A DNA stretch of 64,000 nt from Halomonas alkalisoli (lineage in GTDB: Bacteria > Pseudomonadota > Gammaproteobacteria > Pseudomonadales > Halomonadaceae): the NCBI RefSeq assembly GCF_021412585.1, contig NZ_JAKCMI010000037.1, forward strand, positions 1 to 64,000, read 5' to 3'. Both the position numbers and the translations under genes were made by a program. The notes below the pieces were generated by a model. That model saw nothing but the letters and a program-made list of their open reading frames with translations, searched no databases and was not told the DNA's origin. Positions 15,741 through 26,999 of the stretch are shown one piece after another (the stretch's first letter is position 1; each line of letters begins with the position of its first letter).

Positions 15741-17696
15741 CTAGCTCCGAGTGCCCGCTTGACGTTGGTCCTCATCAATCTTGAAACGCTGCACCAGCCT
15801 GGCCAATTCGCGTGCCTGGTCGTTCAGGGAGTGGCTGGCAGCGGTCCCTTCTTGAACCAGCACCGCGTTCTGCTGGGTCACCTCGTCGAGCTGGCTCACC
15901 GCCATGTTGATCTGCTCGATGCCCGACGACTGCTCGGTGGCCGCCGTGGCAATCTCGCTGATAAAACTCGATACCCGCTTCACGCCTTCGGCAATGGTGG
16001 ATAGCTGCTGGCTAGCGGAATTCACCAGGCGCTCGCCCTCGTCCACGCTGGCCACGCTGGAATCGACCAGCTCACGGATCTTGTTGGCCTCGGCCGAGCA
16101 GCGGCCGGCCAGCTGACGCACCTCGGTGGCCACCACGGCGAAACCGCGGCCGTGCTCGCCTGCCCGGGCCGCCTCTACCGAGGCATTCAGCGCCAGCAGA
16201 TTGGTCTGGAAGGCGATGCCATCGATGGCCTCGACGATGCTTTCCACGCGCCGGTTGGCCTGCTTGATGCTGCCCATGGACTCGGCCGCCTGCAGACCCA
16301 CTCCACTCGCATTGCGGGTCTGGTCATCCAGCTCGGTGGTCAACTCGCGGGCCTGGGTAGCCGATTCCGCCGTCTGCCGGACGGTGGCGGTCATCTCTTC
16401 GAGGCTGGATGCGGTCTCGACCAGCGAGGAGGACTGCTGCTCGGTACGGCTGGCCAGGTCCTCGTTGCCCTGGGCGATCTCGCTGCTGGCCACGCTGACC
16501 GACTCGGCCGTCTGCCTGATATCGCCCATCATCGCCTGCAGGTTCTGTTGCATCTCGTGCATGTGGGCTAGCAGGCTGGTGGTATCGCCGCGCTTCACCG
16601 GCACCCGCATGGTCAGATCGCCCTGTACCACCCTTCTGACCACTTCCGCCGCCCGCTGCGGGTCGCCGCCCAGCGTCTTCAGCACCGAGCGCACCATGCC
16701 AAGGCTCACCAGCACGGCAATCGAGGTGATGAGCGCTGTGATGCCCACTAGTATCCAGAACAGGCGTGTTACCCCTGCCAGCGCCTCCGCCTCTGGGACC
16801 TCCACCACGAGGCCCCAGTCGAGCATGGGCAGATAGGTATAGCTGCCGATCACCGGGGTTCCGGCGGCATCCGCATAGCGCCCCACGCCGCTTTCGCCGG
16901 TGCCGATGGCTACTGCCGCCTGGGTGGCAAGCTCACGGCTCTCCCCCGCCAACGCCGCCACCGGTGTGACCGGCATGCCGTCGCCCCCCAGCAGGTAGGT
17001 GTCAGAGCTGCCGTCCAGGGACATCTCGGCCATCCGCTCGAACAATACATCGAGACGAACCGCCGCACGCACCACCCCCACGACATCGTCGTTGTCGGCG
17101 AAGACCGGTGCCACCACGTTGCTCACCTGATTGCCCGTAGCGCGCGACACCAGCGGCTGGGAGAAGATCGGCTGCCCCTGAATCGCCTCGCGGAACCAGG
17201 CGCGGTCGGCCACGTTGAAGGCACGCGCATCGTCGCTCGACAACACCGCCGCTCCTCCGTCATAGCTCACGCCAGCCACGCCGATGCCATCCTGGCCAAC
17301 GAAGAACAGCGTATCGTAGTAGCCGCTCTGCTCGGCCAGACGCGTCAGCAGGTGCTGAATCGGCTCTATCTCCACCTGGCGCACCGGGTCGAGACCCGCC
17401 ACGTAGCCGACCTCGTCCTGGCGCGCCCCCAGCCACTGGGTAAAGGACCCGGCCATCATCTCGCCAGTGCCCTGCAGCTGGTCCACCGTCGCCTGCGTGA
17501 AGGACTGGCGATACTGGGCATAGACAAGCCCCGCCACCAGCATCACCGAGATCAGTACCAGCGAGACGATCATCAGCGTCAAGCGGCTGCTGAAGCCCAG
17601 CCGTGAGCGTTGCTGCTGTGGCGAATCGACAGCTTGTGAAGCCGGACGCTCAGCCTCGGCATCGTCGGGTAAACGGGCCAGCGTAATGGAATTCAT
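15741..17696 (-). CDS. Methyl-accepting chemotaxis protein (dCache-HAMP-MCP signal)
   Basis: A 651-residue transmembrane chemoreceptor. A first helix ([22 protein letters not shown]) is followed by a dCache-type periplasmic sensor (residues ~60-300), a second helix ([21 protein letters not shown]) and HAMP. The cytoplasmic signalling domain has the hairpin tip [20 protein letters not shown] and flanking methylation helices. ATG 17696 is chosen because AGGAGAG lies 6 bases upstream. The longer frame starting at 17768 lacks this. The ligand is unknown. A sigma-28-like -10 box with a weak -35 lies upstream (17798-17824), fitting a late flagellar/chemotaxis gene. Confidence 0.93.
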
Positions 17697-17797
17697 CGTT
17701 GCTCTCCTGCCATCAGCCACTCTGGCGCACCAGGCCAGCGGTGAGGGCATGGTTATCGTTGTTGTCAACGCAAGCAGATGTTGCCTGCCTCCCCCCG

Positions 17798-17824
17798 TTA
17801 TCGGCCTGGGCAGGTGAAGATTGA
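17798..17824 (-). promoter_or_regulatory. Sigma-28-like promoter of the chemoreceptor gene (weak -35)
   Basis: On the minus strand the -10 element is GCCGATAA, a perfect FliA match, 11 bases downstream of TCAATCTT, which matches the TAAAGTTT consensus at 5 of 8 positions. It points at the chemoreceptor start about 100 bases away. Chemoreceptors are commonly FliA-dependent. Confidence 0.5.
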
Positions 17825-17858: not shown

Positions 17859-17980
17859 CTTCTTTATCAGATGTTTCGGATGTAAGAAGGACAGGGCAAA
17901 GAAAACACGTGTGCAGCTTTATGCGCTATCCGAAAACTGGCTACCTTCGGCCATAAGGCATCGAGTCATTCTGAAGTTTA

Positions 17981-18013
17981 CTGAGGCCCTGCCTAGATTA
18001 ATGCGGGCCTCAG
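17981..18013 (-). terminator. Hairpin downstream of the DUF726 gene
   Basis: CTGAGGCCC at 17981-17989 pairs perfectly with GGGCCTCAG at 18005-18013 across a 15-base loop, 27 bases after the DUF726 stop. There is no strong T-tract on the minus strand, so termination is likely but not certain. Confidence 0.45.
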
Positions 18014-18039
18014 TTTGAGGTGTATTCAGCCAGTATATT

Positions 18040-19548
18040 TTACTCAGCTTCCACTACAGGCGATGTATTCGACGCTTCCCGCAACGTATCACGGCCCAGT
18101 TCAAGGCGGTCGAGCACGGCACCAAGATTGGCTTTCCACTCATTGTGCCCACCGATCAAGTTGCTGAAATCACTATTGACGACGCCTTCCACGCCATGAG
18201 ATACCGGCACAAGACCCGCCGGTGTGGAGAGGCCGGCATTAGCCATACGATAGAGCCACTTGAGCACTCCATCTCGCTCCGAATAGCAATTGTATACTCC
18301 ACCCGAAGTGGCACTGGCCGCAGTCGTCCAGTCCACCTCACTCTCATTGCCCACAGCACCACCCATCAGGACAGCGTTCCTGACGTACTTTTCTCCACCC
18401 TTGCTGGCCAGAGCCAGCAGTGCAAAGAAAACCACTCTCGCCCCCAACGAATGCCCCATCAGAGTGAATGTCTTTCCCTCGGTGCGACTAATCGCCTCGG
18501 CCAGTAGCAGCCCCGCCTTTTCAGCATTCAACATGGCGGAATGCCAAGGGTTGGAAGCAAGCCCTACTGCTGTCATTGCCATACCCCCGTGAGATACTCC
18601 TTTAGCCAACGCTTTCGATGCCAGGCCGACTCCACTTGACAATATACTGCTGGAGAACATGCTACGACTGGTGCCACTCAACATACCACCCAGCTTTCGC
18701 AACGTCTTGGCCTCCCAGTTAAGATACCAGAGTGGGGCATCTTGGTAGTGATCTGCCAATCCATCGCACCAGTCATGCGCCTCCATGTCTTCCTCGGAGA
18801 GAAAGCCGTTGACCACAACGACTCTATGTCCACAATCACTGGAGGTAGCCCTTTTTAAGGTGAAATGATAATCGGGAATATCCTTGAAATAGGCATTCGC
18901 CAGACCATAACCTGTTTTTCCACCAAGACCGGCCCCCGTCGCCGCAATGATTGCAAGGCCGCCACTTCCCACCTTGGCCAGCGATGCCGAAGCGAGTGTT
19001 GCTCCTTTGAGTGTCCCGATAGCAGTGCCAGTGGATGCCGCACCAAGCGCTCCTGTCGACCCCAGCGCAGCAGCAATGCCCGGCGCAGCCAGATAGGCAC
19101 CCGTGCCCACAGCCACGATACCTCCAGCAACCACACCTACCTGTTTGGTAAGGCCATACAGGTTTGCCTTGCGTGGCCGCATCAAATGCTTGAATTCTCC
19201 AAGTTCAAGTATGGTGGCTTTTGCTTTGGTAAAATCAGGCATTGTTCCATCATGCTCGGCACAAAGCTCATTATGCCAATTCTCTGTAAAGAGTTGAGAA
19301 ACACGCTTGATAGAGTCACCAAACAAGCTGTTGCCCTGCCCTTCATCATCACCCTCCACTTTTCTGCTTTCGCCAAGTGCTGCTCGAGCCATATTCTCGC
19401 AATGCCGACACTTGACCGTCAGAAATTCACAGGCTGAACATTTGAAGGTGGAACGGCCAATATTATTTTCCTGAAATAGGGTATGACGACTAAACTCTCC
19501 ACACCAGGAACACCAAGACTCCAGGCTATAAACGTGTTCTTCAGACAT
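18040..19548 (-). CDS. DUF726-type alpha/beta hydrolase with N-terminal zinc ribbon
   Basis: A 502-residue protein. The N-terminus carries three Cys pairs (Cys13/16, 37/40, 47/50), which look like a zinc-ribbon or rubredoxin-type metal site. A Gly/Ala-rich hydrophobic region (~135-215) could be one or more membrane-associating helices. The C-terminal half is an alpha/beta hydrolase with nucleophile elbow GHSLGAR (Ser367), a likely acid at Asp426 (SERDG) and His468 (GGHNEW). This matches the DUF726 family, known mainly from eukaryotes (TMCO4 type) and scattered bacteria, with no established substrate. A good sigma-28 promoter lies upstream (19695-19721), so it may belong to the flagellar regulon. 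Esterase or lipase activity is inferred only from the triad. Confidence 0.75.
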   Translation of the reverse strand: MSEEHVYSLESWCSWCGEFSRHTLFQENNIGRSTFKCSACEFLTVKCRHCENMARAALGESRKVEGDDEGQGNSLFGDSIKRVSQLFTENWHNELCAEHDGTMPDFTKAKATILELGEFKHLMRPRKANLYGLTKQVGVVAGGIVAVGTGAYLAAPGIAAALGSTGALGAASTGTAIGTLKGATLASASLAKVGSGGLAIIAATGAGLGGKTGYGLANAYFKDIPDYHFTLKRATSSDCGHRVVVVNGFLSEEDMEAHDWCDGLADHYQDAPLWYLNWEAKTLRKLGGMLSGTSRSMFSSSILSSGVGLASKALAKGVSHGGMAMTAVGLASNPWHSAMLNAEKAGLLLAEAISRTEGKTFTLMGHSLGARVVFFALLALASKGGEKYVRNAVLMGGAVGNESEVDWTTAASATSGGVYNCYSERDGVLKWLYRMANAGLSTPAGLVPVSHGVEGVVNSDFSNLIGGHNEWKANLGAVLDRLELGRDTLREASNTSPVVEAE

Positions 19549-19694
19549 GATAAAACCCCCTGCTATACGATACCCTGCTTAGGTCGAAGCTAAACGCCAG
19601 CTTCCGCGCCGGCATCCTACCGACCTTCTCGTGTGAGGCAGGCGTTTTCAGCACAGTCTCCAGGCATCGGCGGAGGCTGGCAGCCTAATTATTC

Positions 19695-19721
19695 TTATCG
19701 ACCAACAAGCGTGGGGCTTTA
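19695..19721 (-). promoter_or_regulatory. Sigma-28 promoter upstream of the DUF726 gene
   Basis: On the minus strand this reads TAAAGCCC-N11-GTCGATAA, close to the FliA consensus with exact spacing. The bases upstream of the -35 (CGAAAGTGCTAAAG) are the same as those before the fliD promoter at 25558-25584. The only downstream gene in that direction is the DUF726 hydrolase, starting about 147 bases on. Confidence 0.65.
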
Positions 19722-19837
19722 GCACTTTCGTAATTTACGGTCGGACATGCCCGCTGCTGCACAAACTGAAGCCGGGAACGGGCTACAGCGGGATGGGTAT
19801 CAGGTAAATCGCGTCATGCGCCTTGAGACATCGCCAT

Positions 19838-19962
19838 AAGGCGCTCATGCAGCATCCTCGCCTTCTCGATGGCCTGCGCCTCGCCGTCATCCAGCGTCAG
19901 CACCGGACCATCACCAATAGCTCCAGCGGCTCCTCGGTCGCATCGAGTATCGCCAGAGGCGT
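19838..19962 (-). pseudogene. Decayed copy of the flagellin-linked 128-codon gene
   Basis: Bases 19840-19922 match 22449-22530, the C-terminal coding part of the intact gene, almost base for base. Bases 19925-19957 then match 22670-22710, so about 140 bases of the middle have been deleted. The remnant lies just downstream of the second flagellin, mirroring the intact gene downstream of the first. This points to a past tandem duplication of a flagellin-plus-small-gene unit followed by decay of one copy. Confidence 0.8.
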
Positions 19963-19966
19963 GAGT

Positions 19967-22294
19967 TTAACCAAGCAGTGATAGCACGCTTTGCGGCACC
20001 TGGTTGGCCTGGGCCAGCATGCTCGTGCCGGCCTGCTGCAGGATCTGGGCCTTGGTCATGTTGGCAACCTCTACCGCATAGTCGGTACCCATGATGCGTG
20101 AGCGTGCGGCCGACAGGTTGATATTAGTTGTTTCATGAGACTCAATCACCGACCCTAGGCGATTCTCCATGGCACCGAGATGGCTGCGTTTACTGTCGAC
20201 AAAACTGATGGCTTGGTCGAGAGCAGCCAGAGGATTGGACGGTGTTTTGAGGCGAATTTCCTGTTCAGATTCAGTGATGTTGATGATGGTATGTGGCGCG
20301 CCATCGGCAACCTGCTCGCCATTGTCGAAGCCGTTGGCATCGGTTTCGACCGAAACCAGATTAAGTGCAGCGGTCAAGTTGGAAGGGTGGTAAATAATGA
20401 CCTCATTGGTGCCATTGATTGTCTTGATCAGGACTTGATTATCTTCAGTATCAACAAGACTGGCGATCTTGAAGCTTCCATAACTTGACAGACTGTTAGG
20501 CAGATTAAAATAATAATTTCCATCCGCCCCTTGCCGAAGCACATCCGAAAAAGTATCACCGTTGCTGTCAGTGTAGTTTACCGTCACATTCCGCGGATCG
20601 ATTGTCACCACTGAAGTCCCATGTACCGTCGGGACACGGTGGGCCTCGATATCGAAAATGGTCGGGGTCGAATTGGTCGTTACAGCCCAGATCGAATGCG
20701 TATCACCATTGCTTTCCAGGCCAACGCTGACTGAAGCATCAAAGTAGTGATAGACCCCTTCTGCCATCTTGGCCTCGATCACGTATTGGCCGTCTGACCG
20801 CTGCATCAGACGTGCTGGCTCGTCAAACAGTTCGCCATCTGGATTGAGGAAGCGTAAATCTTCCTGTGGCGTTGCGACCGACGGCGTGGAATTGACGTTT
20901 GTTGCCTGGCCTGTCAAATCCAGCCCCGTAAATGCCGTCGCGCATTCCGCATGCAGGACAAGGCGCTCTTTATCGACAAGCCGTGTCGACCAGTCTTCCA
21001 AGTCCTCGTCCCAATAGCTTTCGGACTCAGTATAATCCTCTGTCGTCACACTTCCCAACCGATGGTAGGCCGTTTCACCGTTTACTTCGGCCTGCAAGTA
21101 ATAGCCGCCATTGCTGGATTGTACCAACTCTCCGTCGGGCAAGGTGGCGCCGTTGCTGCGCAGGAACCGAATATCATCGAAACTGTCAAGGTCGTGATAA
21201 TCACCACCGTTGGGATGATCCACAATTTCACTGGTCGTGGAGTAAACCGGGCCGGCTAGCTCGGCACCTAGCTGGCGCACCTGCACGCCACTCCCACCCG
21301 CTACGAAGCTTATGGCTGCCTCATAGTAGCGCACGACTCCATTTTGCGTCTCTCGTACCACATAGTTGCCATCATGTTGCTGCAACTGCCTAGTTGCTCC
21401 GTCTGCGAAGGGGTCATAAAACGCATCAGTAAACGAAGCGGTGGCAAGTTGCGCAGGAATGTTGTCAACGATTTCGTAGATTCTACCCGTACTGGTAATG
21501 CTGACGACACTGGTGTCCGTGGCGGTGTAATGGGTAGCCAAGGGGTAGCCCGTGTTGTAGAAAACAGGATCGTCACCCAGCATGGCGCTGACATACCAGC
21601 CGTAAGAACCATCTACACTCGGCTGCTGCATAAAGGCTCGCGACGTGCCGGTCACCCCATGGTAGGTGATGGTCGTTTGTGCGTTCGTCTCTGCATAAAG
21701 ATGGATATGGTGAGCGGGCCCCAGGAGTGTATTCCTTGGAGTCACCTCCCCTTCTATGCCCGCGATCGTGAAGTCAGTGAGACCAAGCGAATCGACACTG
21801 AAACCTGGCGGGTTGAGGTCAATGCCCAGCGTTTCCCTGTCATTGGCCCCTACCTGGAGATTGACCGTGCCAGCCTTGCCTGACAGCAAGGGAATGCCGT
21901 TGTAATCCACGGTAGCGGCAAGGCGATCGATCTCACGCAGGTTCATGTTGATCTCGGCCTGAATGGTATCGGTGTCACGCAATGTCAGGGAGCCGTTCAG
22001 TCCCTGTACGGTCAGTTCACGAATGCGCTGCAGCTTATCGTTAATCTGGTCCAGCGCGCCATGAGCCGTCTGCGCCATCGATACACCATCGTTGGCATTG
22101 CGCTGTGCCATCGCCCGTCCGGTGATCTGGCTCGTCAAACGGTTGCCGATGGCCTGGCCTGCGGCATCATCCTTGGCGCTATTGACGCGCAACCCCGATG
22201 AGAGCCGCTCCATGGCGGTTGCCAGCAACAACTGCGAGCGGCCAAGGTTGGCCTGGCCAGTGAGGGAAAGAAGGTTGGTATTGATGCTTGCCAT
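19967..22294 (-). CDS. Large flagellin with a ~500-residue modular central domain
   Basis: A 775-residue flagellin, about three times the size of its neighbour. The N-terminal D0/D1 part ([40 protein letters not shown]) and the C-terminal part (ENRLGSVIESHETT... LLAQANQVPQSVLSLLG) are typical and similar to the 271-residue flagellin. Between about residues 175 and 690 lies an Asp/Asn/Tyr-rich insertion. It contains repeated modules of the pattern Leu-x-Gln-x-x-Asp-Gly-x-Tyr (QQHDGNYVV, QSSNGGYYL, QRSDGQYVI, QGADGNYYF). These should be exposed on the filament surface. No HExxH protease motif is seen. It has its own sigma-28 promoter and is probably secreted by the flagellar export apparatus. 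Confidence 0.92.
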   Translation of the reverse strand: MASINTNLLSLTGQANLGRSQLLLATAMERLSSGLRVNSAKDDAAGQAIGNRLTSQITGRAMAQRNANDGVSMAQTAHGALDQINDKLQRIRELTVQGLNGSLTLRDTDTIQAEINMNLREIDRLAATVDYNGIPLLSGKAGTVNLQVGANDRETLGIDLNPPGFSVDSLGLTDFTIAGIEGEVTPRNTLLGPAHHIHLYAETNAQTTITYHGVTGTSRAFMQQPSVDGSYGWYVSAMLGDDPVFYNTGYPLATHYTATDTSVVSITSTGRIYEIVDNIPAQLATASFTDAFYDPFADGATRQLQQHDGNYVVRETQNGVVRYYEAAISFVAGGSGVQVRQLGAELAGPVYSTTSEIVDHPNGGDYHDLDSFDDIRFLRSNGATLPDGELVQSSNGGYYLQAEVNGETAYHRLGSVTTEDYTESESYWDEDLEDWSTRLVDKERLVLHAECATAFTGLDLTGQATNVNSTPSVATPQEDLRFLNPDGELFDEPARLMQRSDGQYVIEAKMAEGVYHYFDASVSVGLESNGDTHSIWAVTTNSTPTIFDIEAHRVPTVHGTSVVTIDPRNVTVNYTDSNGDTFSDVLRQGADGNYYFNLPNSLSSYGSFKIASLVDTEDNQVLIKTINGTNEVIIYHPSNLTAALNLVSVETDANGFDNGEQVADGAPHTIINITESEQEIRLKTPSNPLAALDQAISFVDSKRSHLGAMENRLGSVIESHETTNINLSAARSRIMGTDYAVEVANMTKAQILQQAGTSMLAQANQVPQSVLSLLG

Positions 22295-22408: not shown

Positions 22409-22795
22409 TCACGCCTCCGAAACGTTTCCGTCCGGCTTGGAGCCTCTGAGTAACCGCTCGTGCAGCAGGCTCGCTTTCTCGATGGCCTGCGCCTCGCCGT
22501 CATCCAGCGTCAGCACCGGCCCATCACCGATGGCCCCGCCGCTCTCCTCGCTGTCCCGCATCGCCTGTACGTCTTGCGAATATCGGGTCAGCAGGTGCTT
22601 GATATTCAAGCGAATGGTAAACAACTCGAGTTCCATCGCATCCTGCTGCTCCTGGCGCCGCGCCTGCTCCAATGGCTCCTCGGTCACTTCGAGTATCGCC
22701 AGCAGAGTGTTCTGGACCATCTCCTCCGCCGCCTTCAGCTTCGGCAGAATCTCGTAAAGCACTTCATGCAAGGTGATCCGCTGCGGTTCATTCAT
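22409..22795 (-). CDS. Hypothetical protein encoded between the two flagellins
   Basis: A 128-residue acidic, mostly helical soluble protein with no signal peptide (starts MNEPQRITLHEVLYEILPKLKAAEEMV). I do not recognise the family. It lies directly downstream of the 271-residue flagellin, and a decayed duplicate follows the large flagellin, so it was duplicated together with a flagellin. Size, helix content and place resemble where FliS or FliT chaperones are often found, but the sequence lacks their recognisable features. A role in flagellin handling is inference from context. Confidence 0.7.
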   Translation of the reverse strand: MNEPQRITLHEVLYEILPKLKAAEEMVQNTLLAILEVTEEPLEQARRQEQQDAMELELFTIRLNIKHLLTRYSQDVQAMRDSEESGGAIGDGPVLTLDDGEAQAIEKASLLHERLLRGSKPDGNVSEA

Positions 22796-24135: not shown

Positions 24136-25515
24136 TTACTTTTTCTTCGGTGCCATCTGCATACTCAACATATCGAGCTGCTGCGTTAGGTAGGAACTGG
24201 TGGCATTCATCTGGGCAATCAGGCTGTCGAGCTGGCCGAATTGCTTCCGATAGCGCTCGATAGTCTGCTCGATGGTGCGCTCCATACGCTCGAAGCGGTC
24301 GTCGAGGTTACTGACACGCGCTTCCGAGCCCTTGATCGAGCTTTTTACAAGACCATCGTCGCCCAGAATTTGGCCGAGGGTTCCACTGAGGCGACCTGCC
24401 ATGCCGGCTTCCTTGGCATCACCGGCAAAGAAGTCGGCAAGCGCCTGGGGATTGTTCGCAATCACATCGTCGAGCTTGGCCTCGTCCAGCTCAAGCCGGC
24501 CATTGGGGCGCAGGGAAATACCGAGCTGCGACATCATCGTCAGCTCCCCCCCCTGCACGAGACTGCCCAGGTCACGACTGAGGCGCGATTCGATGGTTCT
24601 CACCGCCCGGTTACCGACCAGCTCACCTGCCGTTTCCGCATCGCCGGTGACGTTCGTCATGCGACCGATGGTCGATTTCATTTCGTTGTAGGCGGAAACG
24701 AAGCCGGTTACGGCCTCGCGCAGCGCTTCGGTGTCACGTTCCACCACAATAGTAGACGTCTTGCCCACTGCTGCCGCGTCCAAATCCAGCGTTACTCCCT
24801 GGATGGCGCCCTCTACCCGGTTGGAGCTGCTGGTGATGGTGATATTGTTGATCACGAGTTCGGCATTGCTGCCAGGCACTCGGGCTTCGGTATCCTCAGC
24901 CAGCGTGGTGTTGGTGGTGGGGACGCCGAACGTCATACCCGTGATCGACTGATCCGCGCCGGTCTCTTTCGAATTCAACACCAACCGATAACCGTTCTGG
25001 GTGCCGTCGTTGATGATCGACGCGGTAACCCCCGCATCCGGATGTGCATTGATGGCATCGCGGATATTCTCGAGGCTGTCTCCCTCAACGAGAGCGACCG
25101 TAACGTTGGCCTTGCCCGCGAAAGTGAGCGTCAGCGTATCGCCGCCCGCTCCCACCAACGCATCGGTCGTGCTTGTCTTCCCCTGGCTGGCGATGCTGCC
25201 CGCCTTGGCGATGTGGTTTACAGTGACTTCGTAACGCCCAGGGGTCGCTTCTGCTCCCGCTGTCGCGGAGACCCCTTGACCCAGCACGCTAGTGGTCAGG
25301 CTCTGATGGAGCTTGGGATCATTGAGCTTGGTCACGGCATCCTGAAACTTGGTCAGGGCCGACTGCAGCCTGCCAAACGCTGAAATCTTGGCCTGCTCTT
25401 GTGTCTTCTGGGCCGTGATCGGCTGAAGCTTCTGGCGTTCGGCCGCATTCAGCTGATTCAGCAGTCCTGAAAGATCAAGGCCTGAGCCCACGCCGAGAGA
25501 GGTTATCGTTGCCAT
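24136..25515 (-). CDS. fliD: Flagellar filament cap protein FliD (copy 1)
   Basis: A 459-residue FliD that caps the growing filament and helps flagellin fold. The N-terminal heptad region begins MATITSLGVGSGLDLSGLLNQL. The middle contains the hook-associated D2/D3 domains, and the C-terminal coiled coil ends YRKQFGQLDSLIAQMNATSSYLTQQLDML. It is clearly related along its whole length to the next fliD (25632-26999), so the pair arose by tandem duplication. It has its own sigma-28 promoter. Whether both caps are used together or on different filaments is unknown. Confidence 0.95.
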   Translation of the reverse strand: MATITSLGVGSGLDLSGLLNQLNAAERQKLQPITAQKTQEQAKISAFGRLQSALTKFQDAVTKLNDPKLHQSLTTSVLGQGVSATAGAEATPGRYEVTVNHIAKAGSIASQGKTSTTDALVGAGGDTLTLTFAGKANVTVALVEGDSLENIRDAINAHPDAGVTASIINDGTQNGYRLVLNSKETGADQSITGMTFGVPTTNTTLAEDTEARVPGSNAELVINNITITSSSNRVEGAIQGVTLDLDAAAVGKTSTIVVERDTEALREAVTGFVSAYNEMKSTIGRMTNVTGDAETAGELVGNRAVRTIESRLSRDLGSLVQGGELTMMSQLGISLRPNGRLELDEAKLDDVIANNPQALADFFAGDAKEAGMAGRLSGTLGQILGDDGLVKSSIKGSEARVSNLDDRFERMERTIEQTIERYRKQFGQLDSLIAQMNATSSYLTQQLDMLSMQMAPKKK

Positions 25516-25631: not shown

Positions 25632-26999
25632 TCAGGAATTATTTCCCATCTGGGTCTCCAGCATGCCCAGTTGCTGGGTAAGATATTGGCTTGTCTGGTT
25701 CATGCTGGCGATCATGCCATCGAGCTGTGCAAATTGAGTACGGTAGCGATCGATAGTCTGCTCAATGGTCCGCTCAGTGCGCTCGAAGCGATCCCCAAGA
25801 CTGGCGATACGGTCCTCGGTGCTATTGATTGAGCCTTCCAGGGCACCGTTGCTGCTCAGAAGCTGCTCGGTAGTGCCCGCCAGTCGACCAGCCAGGCCGG
25901 CGGTGTCGCCATCGCCCGCGAAAAAGCTGGCTACGCCGTCCGGGTTGTCTGCCAGTGCGACATCCAGCTGCTGTTCATCCAGTTGCAGGGTGCCATCGAC
26001 GCTGAGCGAGAGCCCCATATCGGAGAGCAGCGCAAGTTCGCCATCCTGGGTCACGCCGGCAGCCAGGTCGCCACGCAGGTTGGACTCAATGCCACGCACA
26101 GCGCTATCACCAATCAGCGGCCCTGGCTCGTTCTCCTCGCCATTGAACGCGGTAAGCTGCCCCGCGGTGCCTTTCAGCTCGTTGTAGGCATTCACGAAAC
26201 CGATGATACCCTCACGAATGGTGTCGTTATCGCGCTGAACCACCACGGTACTGCTGCCCGGCTCCTGCAGGTCCAGGGTCACGCCCTGAATAGCATCTTC
26301 TATCTGGTTGGTAGCACTGACGATGTCGATGCCGTTGACCGAGAAATCTGCATCCTGCCCAACCTGGGCCACCGTGCCACCCGGGTCGGCAGCAAGATTT
26401 CCGGCCGCCAGCTGATCGAAGTTGGTGCCGGTAATCGAGGCCTGTTCACCTGTCTCCGCCGACATCAGCGCCAGGCGGTGGCCTTCCCCGTCAAACACAA
26501 TGGAGGCATTCACCGCTGCATCGGGATCGGCGTTGATGGCGTCGCGCACGTCTTCCAGCGTGCTGTCTGCGGCAATGGCCACCCCATGGTTGAGGGCATC
26601 GTCGGTAAAGGTCAGCTCGAGTTCGCCGCCAGATTCGGTGACGACAGTATCCAGATCAGCGACCCGCTCGGTAGCCAGGTTGCCGGCAGTGGCGATCTGT
26701 CGCACTTCGACACTGTAGCTCCCCGGGGTGGCATCGGCGCTGGCGGCAGCTTGCAGGGCACTGCCAGTCACATCCGTCGTCACACTCTGGAAGAGCGAAG
26801 GATCATTGAGGCTATTGACGCTATCGTCAAAAGTGGCAAGCGAACTCTGGATTTCACCATAGGCTGAGATCTGTACTTCCTGTGCCTGAACCTGCTGCGC
26901 TATGGGGTCGAGCTTGGCGCGCTCGGCCTGGTTGAGCTGCTCCAGCAGACCGTTGAGGTCCAGGCCGGAGCCGATGCCGAGGGAGGAAATGGTGGCCAT
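25632..26999 (-). CDS. fliD: Flagellar filament cap protein FliD (copy 2)
   Basis: A 455-residue FliD with the same start (MATISSLGIGSGLDLNGLLEQL) and end (YRTQFAQLDGMIASMNQTSQYLTQQLGML) as copy 1, and a more divergent, more acidic middle. Overall acidity (many Asp/Glu) fits a halophile. It lies 116 bases upstream of copy 1 and has a separate sigma-28 promoter, so expression could be set independently. Two caps beside two flagellins suggests matched cap-flagellin pairs, which is inference. Confidence 0.95.
   Translation of the reverse strand: MATISSLGIGSGLDLNGLLEQLNQAERAKLDPIAQQVQAQEVQISAYGEIQSSLATFDDSVNSLNDPSLFQSVTTDVTGSALQAAASADATPGSYSVEVRQIATAGNLATERVADLDTVVTESGGELELTFTDDALNHGVAIAADSTLEDVRDAINADPDAAVNASIVFDGEGHRLALMSAETGEQASITGTNFDQLAAGNLAADPGGTVAQVGQDADFSVNGIDIVSATNQIEDAIQGVTLDLQEPGSSTVVVQRDNDTIREGIIGFVNAYNELKGTAGQLTAFNGEENEPGPLIGDSAVRGIESNLRGDLAAGVTQDGELALLSDMGLSLSVDGTLQLDEQQLDVALADNPDGVASFFAGDGDTAGLAGRLAGTTEQLLSSNGALEGSINSTEDRIASLGDRFERTERTIEQTIDRYRTQFAQLDGMIASMNQTSQYLTQQLGMLETQMGNNS

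What the first reader, a model, noticed from the sequence alone, without database searches (positions are those of the whole stretch)
18040..19721. A zinc-ribbon DUF726 hydrolase under a flagellar sigma-28 promoter
TAAAGCCC-N11-GTCGATAA at 19695-19721 points at a single gene encoding a 502-residue alpha/beta hydrolase with a GHSLG nucleophile, a likely Ser367-Asp426-His468 triad, a six-Cys N-terminal metal site and a hydrophobic middle. DUF726 proteins have no known bacterial role, and I know of no flagellar link. It may be a late motility gene, for example a lipase/esterase acting at the membrane or a new surface or export accessory.
Basis: partly seen in the sequence, partly recalled or inferred. 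Interest (0 to 1): 0.75.

Follow-up and report, generated by a model that had tools for sequence, protein, structure and literature searches.

The report
Flagellar-promoter DUF726 hydrolase gene
A bacterium related to Halomonas carries, beside its flagellin genes and under a switch used for late flagellar genes, a lipase-like enzyme of a family with no known job in bacteria, and several relatives keep the same kind of switch in front of theirs.

Summary
The gene at 18040-19548(-) encodes a 502-residue DUF726 protein (E 2.3e-40). TAAAGCCC-N11-GTCGATAA at 19721-19695(-) is one of nine exact TAAAG-N14-GNCGATAA sites in the 4.87-Mb genome. It is not a flagellin relic: in relative G070 promoter, leader and gene form one homologous block although the upstream gene differs, and both promoter elements are identical (16/16). 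Relative G106 has its own strong site, Billgrantia kenyensis a weak one in the same position. A second, very different DUF726 type without zinc ribbon, away from flagellar genes as far as read, also has such sites: perfect in G008, two mismatches in G005. Of eight genus genomes with a DUF726 gene, five have a good site, one a weak one, two none; one of those two lacks a clear FliA. Eleven homologues or fragments outside the genus have no better site than chance. The catalytic triad and eight Cys/His ligands are invariant in 11 ribbon-type homologues. Best reading: a mobile, dispensable serine hydrolase recruited into the late flagellar (sigma-28) regulon of this genus; substrate unknown, acyl lipid at the inner membrane is my guess. 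YplA of Yersinia is a precedent.

The parts
18040..19548 (-). DUF726 serine-hydrolase gene, 502 aa
   Evidence: purifying selection dN 0.030 / dS 0.503 (NG86) against G070 over 381 codons
19695..19721 (-). sigma-28 (FliA)-type promoter TAAAGCCC-N11-GTCGATAA
   Evidence: both elements 16/16 identical in G070
19549..19694 (-). 146 nt between promoter and ATG; with the promoter they belong to the block shared with G070 (block starts near 19776)
   Evidence: 119 of 146 alignment columns identical
19674..19686 (-). small hairpin AGGCTGCCAGCCT just after the promoter, unchanged in G070
   Evidence: as a terminator-like site on the + strand no more frequent than in shuffles
19399..19512 (-). codons 13-50: three CxxC pairs of the N-terminal zinc-ribbon-like domain
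   Evidence: invariant in 11 homologues; beta-rich model, pLDDT 86-93 in residues 11-50
19252..19263 (-). codons 96-99 (CAEH): fourth metal-ligand pair
   Evidence: C96 and H99 invariant in 11 homologues
18883..19155 (-). codons 132-222: Gly/Ala-rich hydrophobic middle, possible membrane association
   Evidence: AlphaFold confidence under 50 here
18085..18873 (-). codons 226-488: alpha/beta-hydrolase domain
   Evidence: best structural matches are lipases, esterases and thioesterases, Z 11.7-13.3
18448..18450 (-). Ser367, nucleophile in GHSLG
   Evidence: invariant
18271..18273 (-). Asp426, likely triad acid
   Evidence: invariant
18145..18147 (-). His468, likely triad base
   Evidence: invariant
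17980..18014 (-). hairpin after the stop codon (CTGAGGCCC...GGGCCTCAG), no T run; may end the single-gene unit
   Evidence: z -2.72
15741..17768 (-). dCache methyl-accepting chemotaxis protein, downstream neighbour
17798..17824 (-). the chemoreceptor gene's own sigma-28-like site TCAATCTT-N11-GCCGATAA, so it need not depend on the DUF726 promoter
   Evidence: TCAA-type sites with 2-3 mismatches before the five further orthologues scored
19967..22294 (-). second flagellin gene, upstream neighbour
19839..19956 (-). remnant of a second copy of the small gene 22409-22795, upstream of the DUF726 block
   Evidence: 89% over 91 nt and 89% over 37 nt

Best explanation
The gene is a class-3 (late, FliA/sigma-28-dependent) accessory gene of the flagellar regulon. 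Its product is a cytoplasmic serine hydrolase with a zinc-ribbon-like N-terminus, a Gly/Ala-rich hydrophobic segment that may dock it to the inner membrane, and a DUF726 alpha/beta-hydrolase domain with triad Ser367-Asp426-His468. It would be made only once the hook is finished and FliA is free, and would cut an ester or thioester bond, most plausibly in acyl lipid or in an acylated protein at the membrane. DUF726 genes come from a mobile gene pool; in this genus at least two different types came under sigma-28 promoters, one of them in the flagellin-chemoreceptor interval, and they are lost or broken again in some members. Supported by sequence: gene, promoter motif and its conservation, catalytic and metal residues, purifying selection, neighbourhood. 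Inferred: FliA dependence, membrane docking, enzymatic activity. Guessed: substrate and role.
For: Promoter: 1 of 9 exact genome sites; of the other 8, two precede fliC2 and (my reading of the ORF) flgK, two precede GGDEF genes, two precede ORFs without a Pfam match, one precedes a glyoxalase-like gene and one lies inside an ORF. One FliA over the cut-off, 272.6 bits. Promoter, leader and gene are one block, 88% identical in G070, where the upstream gene is the chemoreceptor. As good a site in shuffles: window 0, G070 1, G106 0, B. kenyensis 21 of 2000. These four form a 100/100 clade. Flagellin and/or the chemoreceptor gene lie within about 3 kb in all four, and a DUF726 remnant precedes the orthologous chemoreceptor gene in G008. 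Ribbonless type: perfect site 66 nt before the G008 gene (0 of 5000 shuffles; 1 of only 3 exact TAAAG-N14-GCCGATAA sites in that genome) and a 2-mismatch site in register in G005 (17 of 5000). Triad and ligands invariant; lipase-like fold; dN/dS about 0.06 by NG86, 0.10 by YN00.
Against: Rare: hits in 8 of 90 genus genomes and 11 of 275 family genomes. Split by an IS21-type insertion in G070, only a remnant beside the chemoreceptor gene in G008, and frame breaks near the start of G008's ribbonless gene, so the genes are dispensable. At least two of the nine exact sites look unrelated to motility. H. ventosae (G109), with FliA and the gene between fliC and fliD, has no site directly before the gene. 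H. halodenitrificans (G078) keeps an intact gene without a FliA over the cut-off. Eleven homologues or fragments outside the genus lack a site. The eukaryotic relative TMCO4 is said to have no transmembrane element, and the hydrophobic part is modelled with low confidence. No expression or enzyme data.
Confidence: 0.67

Rival explanations
1. The promoter is a relic of a duplicated flagellin unit that happens to lie before an unrelated inserted gene; the gene itself is not part of the flagellar programme.
For: A remnant of the small gene 22409-22795, which precedes the fliC2 promoter, lies just upstream at 19839-19956, so a copied unit did decay here. A short match to the start of the fliC2 promoter exists (16 of 18 nt, E 0.92).
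Against: The block shared with G070 begins near 19776 and includes the promoter, while the remnant is outside it; in G070 the same promoter follows the chemoreceptor gene. G106, G008 and G005 have sites of other sequence before their own copies.
Confidence: 0.05
2. The gene is a mobile defence- or conflict-type cargo gene; the sigma-28 promoter only gives it incidental expression.
For: Homologues lie near R-M genes and a Fic protein (H. halodenitrificans), beside a three-gene PADLOC candidate system PDC-M27A/B/C on a conjugative Vibrio plasmid, near a GmrSD-type gene (Burkholderia), near a WYL protein (G522), and near phage integrases or Zot-bearing filamentous-phage genes. Five of 72,556 plasmid records have a match. 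Patchy distribution. Gene GC 53% against 62% for the window. Weak PADLOC hit PDC-M09A, 2.5e-7, on the hydrophobic part only. The gene is kept in a genome without a clear FliA.
Against: Variable genes cluster in islands whatever they do; flagellins are also low in GC (fliC1 52%). Good sigma-28 sites before five of eight genus copies of two types are hard to call incidental. No match in 50,697 phage records.
Confidence: 0.18
3. The protein is a substrate of the flagellar export apparatus, a secreted phospholipase like YplA, acting outside the cell.
For: YplA is a FliA-regulated phospholipase exported by the flagellar system (PMC4336687 and PMC2262085, passages read). The hydrolase fold is lipase-like.
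Against: The N-terminus is modelled as a compact metal-binding-type domain, unlike the disordered N-terminus usual for flagellar export substrates (recalled). Eight Cys/His ligands fit the reducing cytoplasm better. No export signal was tested.
Confidence: 0.1

Closest known systems
DUF726 / TMCO4 / yeast Mil1 (Yfl034w)
   Same: Same Pfam family; the profile spans the hydrophobic part and the hydrolase. TMCO4 is called an orphan lipase, orthologous to Mil1 and likely partly soluble, recruited to the ER by RAB18 (PMC10641524, passages).
   Different: The bacterial protein has an N-terminal zinc-ribbon-type domain and a sigma-28-type promoter. A 2024 hydrolase survey describes DUF726 as a family of eukaryotic proteins (PMC11878206, passage); a 2005 paper lists a Pseudomonas syringae member (PMC554113, passage).
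YplA, flagellar-regulon phospholipase of Yersinia enterocolitica
   Same: A lipolytic enzyme gene controlled as a class III (FliA) flagellar gene.
   Different: No sequence comparison was made here; YplA is exported, while this protein looks cytoplasmic with a metal-binding-type N-terminus.
PADLOC candidate PDC-M09A
   Same: Weak match over the hydrophobic region, 2.5e-7 and 7.4e-4 for two models.
   Different: Only positions 69-162 of 282 (or 140-204 of 330) align; the hydrolase and ribbon parts do not.
Ribbonless DUF726 proteins of G005 and G008
   Same: GHSLG hydrolase part with the triad columns invariant; sigma-28-type site before the gene.
   Different: No zinc ribbon, long unrelated N-terminus, 25% identity over the alignment; no flagellin, fliD or chemoreceptor gene nearby as far as read (19 kb and a 3.7-kb contig).

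Membership tests
DUF726 (PF05277) | Score over the Pfam gathering cut-off across most of the profile | tested here: met
   139.1 bits against 22.6, profile 14-341 of 343
DUF726 (PF05277) | Ser-Asp-His triad of an alpha/beta hydrolase | tested here: met
   S367, D426, H468 invariant in 11 rows and in the 7-row alignment; fold matches
DUF726 (PF05277) | Hydrolase activity on a lipid or ester | not testable with these tools
   no assay
FliA (sigma-28) regulon | TAAAG-N14-GCCGATAA-type promoter on the right strand before the gene | tested here: met
   19721-19695(-), 1 mismatch of 13 core positions; 0 of 2000 shuffles
FliA (sigma-28) regulon | Promoter conserved with the gene in relatives | tested here: met
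   good in the window, G070, G106, G008 and G005, weak in B. kenyensis, none in G109 and G078; none in eleven homologues or fragments outside the genus, so met for the genus only
FliA (sigma-28) regulon | Transcription lost in a fliA mutant | not testable with these tools
   no expression data; a FliA gene is present
Flagellar-exported phospholipase (YplA-like) | Export by the flagellar secretion system | not testable with these tools
   needs secretion assay
Flagellar-exported phospholipase (YplA-like) | Sequence relationship to YplA | not tested
   YplA was not fetched
PADLOC PDC-M09A candidate defence protein | Full-length match to the model | tested here: not met
   best match covers 69-162 of 282 positions
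Zinc ribbon | Paired CxxC/CxxH ligands on a beta-rich scaffold | tested here: met
   four invariant pairs, five-strand model
Zinc ribbon | Match to a solved zinc-ribbon structure | tested here: inconclusive
   Foldseek rows include RNA-polymerase small subunits and ATCase regulatory chains, all E above 1

The most novel reading that the evidence does not exclude
DUF726 genes of this genus are motility-gated immune effectors: membrane-acting hydrolases drawn from the mobile defence pool and placed under sigma-28, so that they are present only in flagellated cells, the ones open to phages that use the flagellum. This would explain why two very different DUF726 types acquired sigma-28 sites here, wherever they sit, and why homologues elsewhere lie beside filament or stator genes in some lineages and beside restriction and candidate defence genes in others.
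Probability: 0.1. Interest if true: 0.85.

Novelty: new variant of a known kind. Interest (0 to 1): 0.57.

Why it matters
DUF726 hydrolases run from bacteria to humans (TMCO4) and I found no substrate for any of them in the passages read. A bacterial member tied to a defined regulon gives a cheap genetic handle: a halomonad, a clear condition of expression (flagellated cells) and visible phenotypes (motility, membrane lipids, phage sensitivity). If confirmed, it would add a lipase-like enzyme family to the genes of the flagellar regulon that are not flagellar parts.

Tried and rejected
Relic-promoter idea: I first expected the site to be left over from a copied flagellin unit because of the remnant at 19839-19956; the G070 arrangement spoke against it.

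Operon with the chemoreceptor gene: not favoured, because that gene has its own sigma-28-like site, similar before the orthologues, and a hairpin follows the DUF726 stop codon.

Toxin-like hydrophobic middle: a profile search of solved structures gave MakA, VCA0883 and an enterotoxin component at E 0.66-0.82, and a class 3 lipase at 0.23; not significant. A paper listing on flagellum-secreted MakA was seen; nothing was built on it.

Other empty results: viral-contig searches gave no relatives of the small gene 22409-22795 or of DUF726; no phage record; no paper naming PDC-M09; the search for FliA regulon with lipase gave one review (listing only); the flagellotropic-phage search gave a list of 10 of 23 papers in which no title or abstract start ties defence genes to sigma-28 (listing only). 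The N-terminal fold search gave no significant match; the whole model had one Foldseek match at E up to 0.001.

Faults and gaps in my own work: the BLAST column of the script came out empty and was not used. The hydropathy ran on gapped rows and is replaced. In one search the DUF726 queries carried gap signs, which BLAST ignored. In one search the G106 row was cut from a gapped row, so its first residues are not exact. The B. kenyensis and Alloalcanivorax comparisons gave no dS value. How often a random gene lies near a motility gene was not measured. Weak hits not followed up: G497, G533, G463 and seven of the nine; of G032 only upstream sequence was scanned, with no site. L032 and L034 (contigs of 3.9 and 4.1 kb) are too short to judge for neighbours.

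Full report
What is there. The minus-strand ORF 18040-19548 encodes 502 residues and matches DUF726 over nearly the whole profile. The site TAAAGCCC-CACGCTTGTTG-GTCGATAA at 19721-19695 points at it, with 146 nt between. Upstream lie two flagellin genes and two genes that I read as fliD; downstream lies a dCache chemoreceptor gene. The window holds many flagellar genes (names other than flagellin and chemoreceptor are my reading of the ORFs).

Is the promoter more than chance? The exact pattern TAAAG-N14-GNCGATAA occurs 4 times in the window, with 0.01 expected, and 9 times in the 4.87-Mb genome; with one mismatch allowed 33 against 7 for the reversed control. Of the other eight exact sites, two precede fliC2 and flgK (the latter my reading), two precede GGDEF proteins, two precede ORFs without a Pfam match, one precedes a glyoxalase-like gene and one lies inside an ORF. 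So the motif is a fair but not perfect guide to motility-type genes. The genome has one FliA above its curated cut-off.

Does the promoter belong to this gene? Just upstream, 19839-19956 is a decayed copy of the small gene 22409-22795, which itself precedes the fliC2 promoter. That suggested a relic. But in genome G070 (protein 95% identical over 383 residues) window 19776-18408 matches as one block at 88%, and there the block follows the chemoreceptor gene. Both promoter elements are identical (16 of 16), against 119 of 146 columns in the leader and 53 of 77 upstream. In G106 the copy has a site TAAAGTTT-N11-GCCGTTAA of different sequence. B. kenyensis (G082) has TCAAGGTT-N11-GCCGATCT, aligned to the window's site. 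As good a site was found in 0 of 2000 shuffles for the window, 1 for G070, 0 for G106 and 21 for B. kenyensis. A tree puts these four in one clade, 100/100.

A second DUF726 type. G005 and G008 carry DUF726 proteins without the zinc ribbon, 25% identical to the window's. G008 has TAAAGTTT-N11-GCCGATAA, no mismatch, 66 nt before the likely start (0 of 5000 shuffles), one of only three exact TAAAG-N14-GCCGATAA sites in its genome; G005 has TAAACCTA-N11-GCCGATAC in the same register (2 mismatches, 17 of 5000). The G008 gene has frame breaks near its start. Tally for the eight genus genomes: at most 2 mismatches in five (window, G070, G106, G008, G005), 3 in B. kenyensis, none in H. ventosae (G109) and H. 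halodenitrificans (G078). G078 has no exact site in its genome and no FliA over the cut-off, while the other eight DUF726 genomes searched for it have one (nine searched). So a clear FliA is not needed to keep the gene.

Outside the genus, eleven homologues or fragments have best sites with 4-6 mismatches, matched by 418 to 2000 of 2000 shuffles: Alloalcanivorax gelatiniphagus, Marinobacter, Shewanella, Burkholderia, Colwellia, G502, two Vibrio plasmid copies, A. venustensis, a Desulfocapsaceae bacterium and the G522 fragment.

Neighbourhoods. Hits in the family: 11 of 275 genomes; genus 8 of 90; order sample 9 of 390; class sample by profile 2 of 369. I read the surroundings of ten of the 11 family genomes (not G497). 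Five have the gene near flagellin and/or a chemoreceptor gene: the window, G070 (split), G082 (chemoreceptor only; contig of 4.9 kb), G106 (flagellin under 3 kb away) and G109 (between fliC and fliD). G078, G502, G522 and G005 show no flagellin, fliD or chemoreceptor gene in 18-19 kb, and the 3.7-kb contig of G008's gene shows none. G008 also has a C-terminal remnant of a ribbon-type copy about 400 nt before the orthologous chemoreceptor gene, on another contig. Close orthologues of that chemoreceptor gene were found in 7 of 61 genus genomes. In G005 and G098 the small gene or flagellin precedes it with no DUF726 gene between; in G010 and G025 neither was seen. Outside the family, six longer loci (L025-L029, L033) and two plasmid loci (L086, L087) were scanned: none has flagellin, fliD or chemoreceptor genes. 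In Burkholderia sp. Bp8963 the gene begins 76 nt after a MotD-like gene, which follows a gene over the NCBIfam cut-off for a flagellar motor protein (251.7 against 237 bits). MotD is below its cut-off and also matches ZorB models of Zorya defence (5.5e-23), though the MotA-like gene matches no PADLOC model; no sigma-28-type site was found before it. Counting this one, 6 of 18 loci read are linked. Other homologues lie near restriction-modification and Fic genes, a candidate defence trio on a conjugative Vibrio plasmid, a WYL protein, phage integrases, and filamentous-phage genes.

The protein. In 11 homologues C13, C16, C37, C40, C47, C50, C96, H99 and S367, D426, H468 are all invariant. The model has mean pLDDT 60: blocks of 75-91 for residues 341-430, 60-84 for about 231-280, under 50 for 132-222 and 291-332. 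Structural matches are phospholipase A1, pancreatic-type lipases, carboxylesterases and thioesterases, Z 11.7-13.3, rmsd 3.2-4.4, 174-219 residues aligned. A shared fold does not give the substrate. dN/dS against G070 is 0.030/0.503 (NG86) or 0.034/0.337 (YN00) over 381 codons, and against G106 0.256/2.11 (NG86) over 452, where dS is near saturation.

Mechanism. I think FliA, once released at hook completion, transcribes this gene singly; the cytoplasmic product folds around metal at its N-terminus, docks by its Gly/Ala-rich part, and hydrolyses an acyl ester or thioester. Only the sequence features are shown; the rest is inference.

Literature. DUF726 was found in 16 papers; I read passages in two of them and in one TMCO4 paper. 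None of these passages gives a bacterial function. YplA is the nearest precedent for a lipolytic enzyme gene under FliA (passages). That no paper links DUF726 to flagella rests only on the listing and those passages.

Verdict. A genuine sigma-28-type promoter, kept with DUF726 genes of two types in this genus but not beyond it, before a hydrolase family without a known bacterial function. Interesting and testable; not a new kind of system.

Noticed in passing
window 19839-19956 and 22409-22795: A decayed second copy of the small gene between the two flagellin genes follows fliC2, evidence that a flagellin/small-gene unit was duplicated and partly lost.
   Followed up: partly
window 19967-22294: The second flagellin has 775 residues with a large central insert between normal flagellin ends, beside a 271-residue flagellin.
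   Followed up: no
window 24136-25515 and 25632-26999: Two tandem genes that I read as fliD (filament cap), each with a sigma-28-like site before it.
   Followed up: no
L031:10001-14528 and L030:9974-14501: In H. ventosae and H. halodenitrificans the DUF726 gene is followed by genes alike in both; in H. ventosae they match CHASE2 and M48-peptidase domains. The cassette lies between fliC and fliD in one species and near R-M genes in the other.
   Followed up: partly
L028:8387-11341: Burkholderia sp. Bp8963 has a DUF726 gene directly after MotC/MotD-type genes, with a GmrSD-type gene further on.
   Followed up: partly
L086:1099-9362: On a conjugative Vibrio nigripulchritudo plasmid the DUF726 gene lies next to a near-full-length PDC-M27A/B/C candidate defence set on the other strand.
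   Followed up: no
L037, L042, L047, L048: Four of the 33 sigma-28-like sites (0 or 1 mismatch) of this genome precede GGDEF or GGDEF-EAL genes, suggesting cyclic-di-GMP enzymes in the flagellar regulon.
   Followed up: partly
L017:6742-10819: G070's DUF726 gene is split by an IS21-type insertion.
   Followed up: yes
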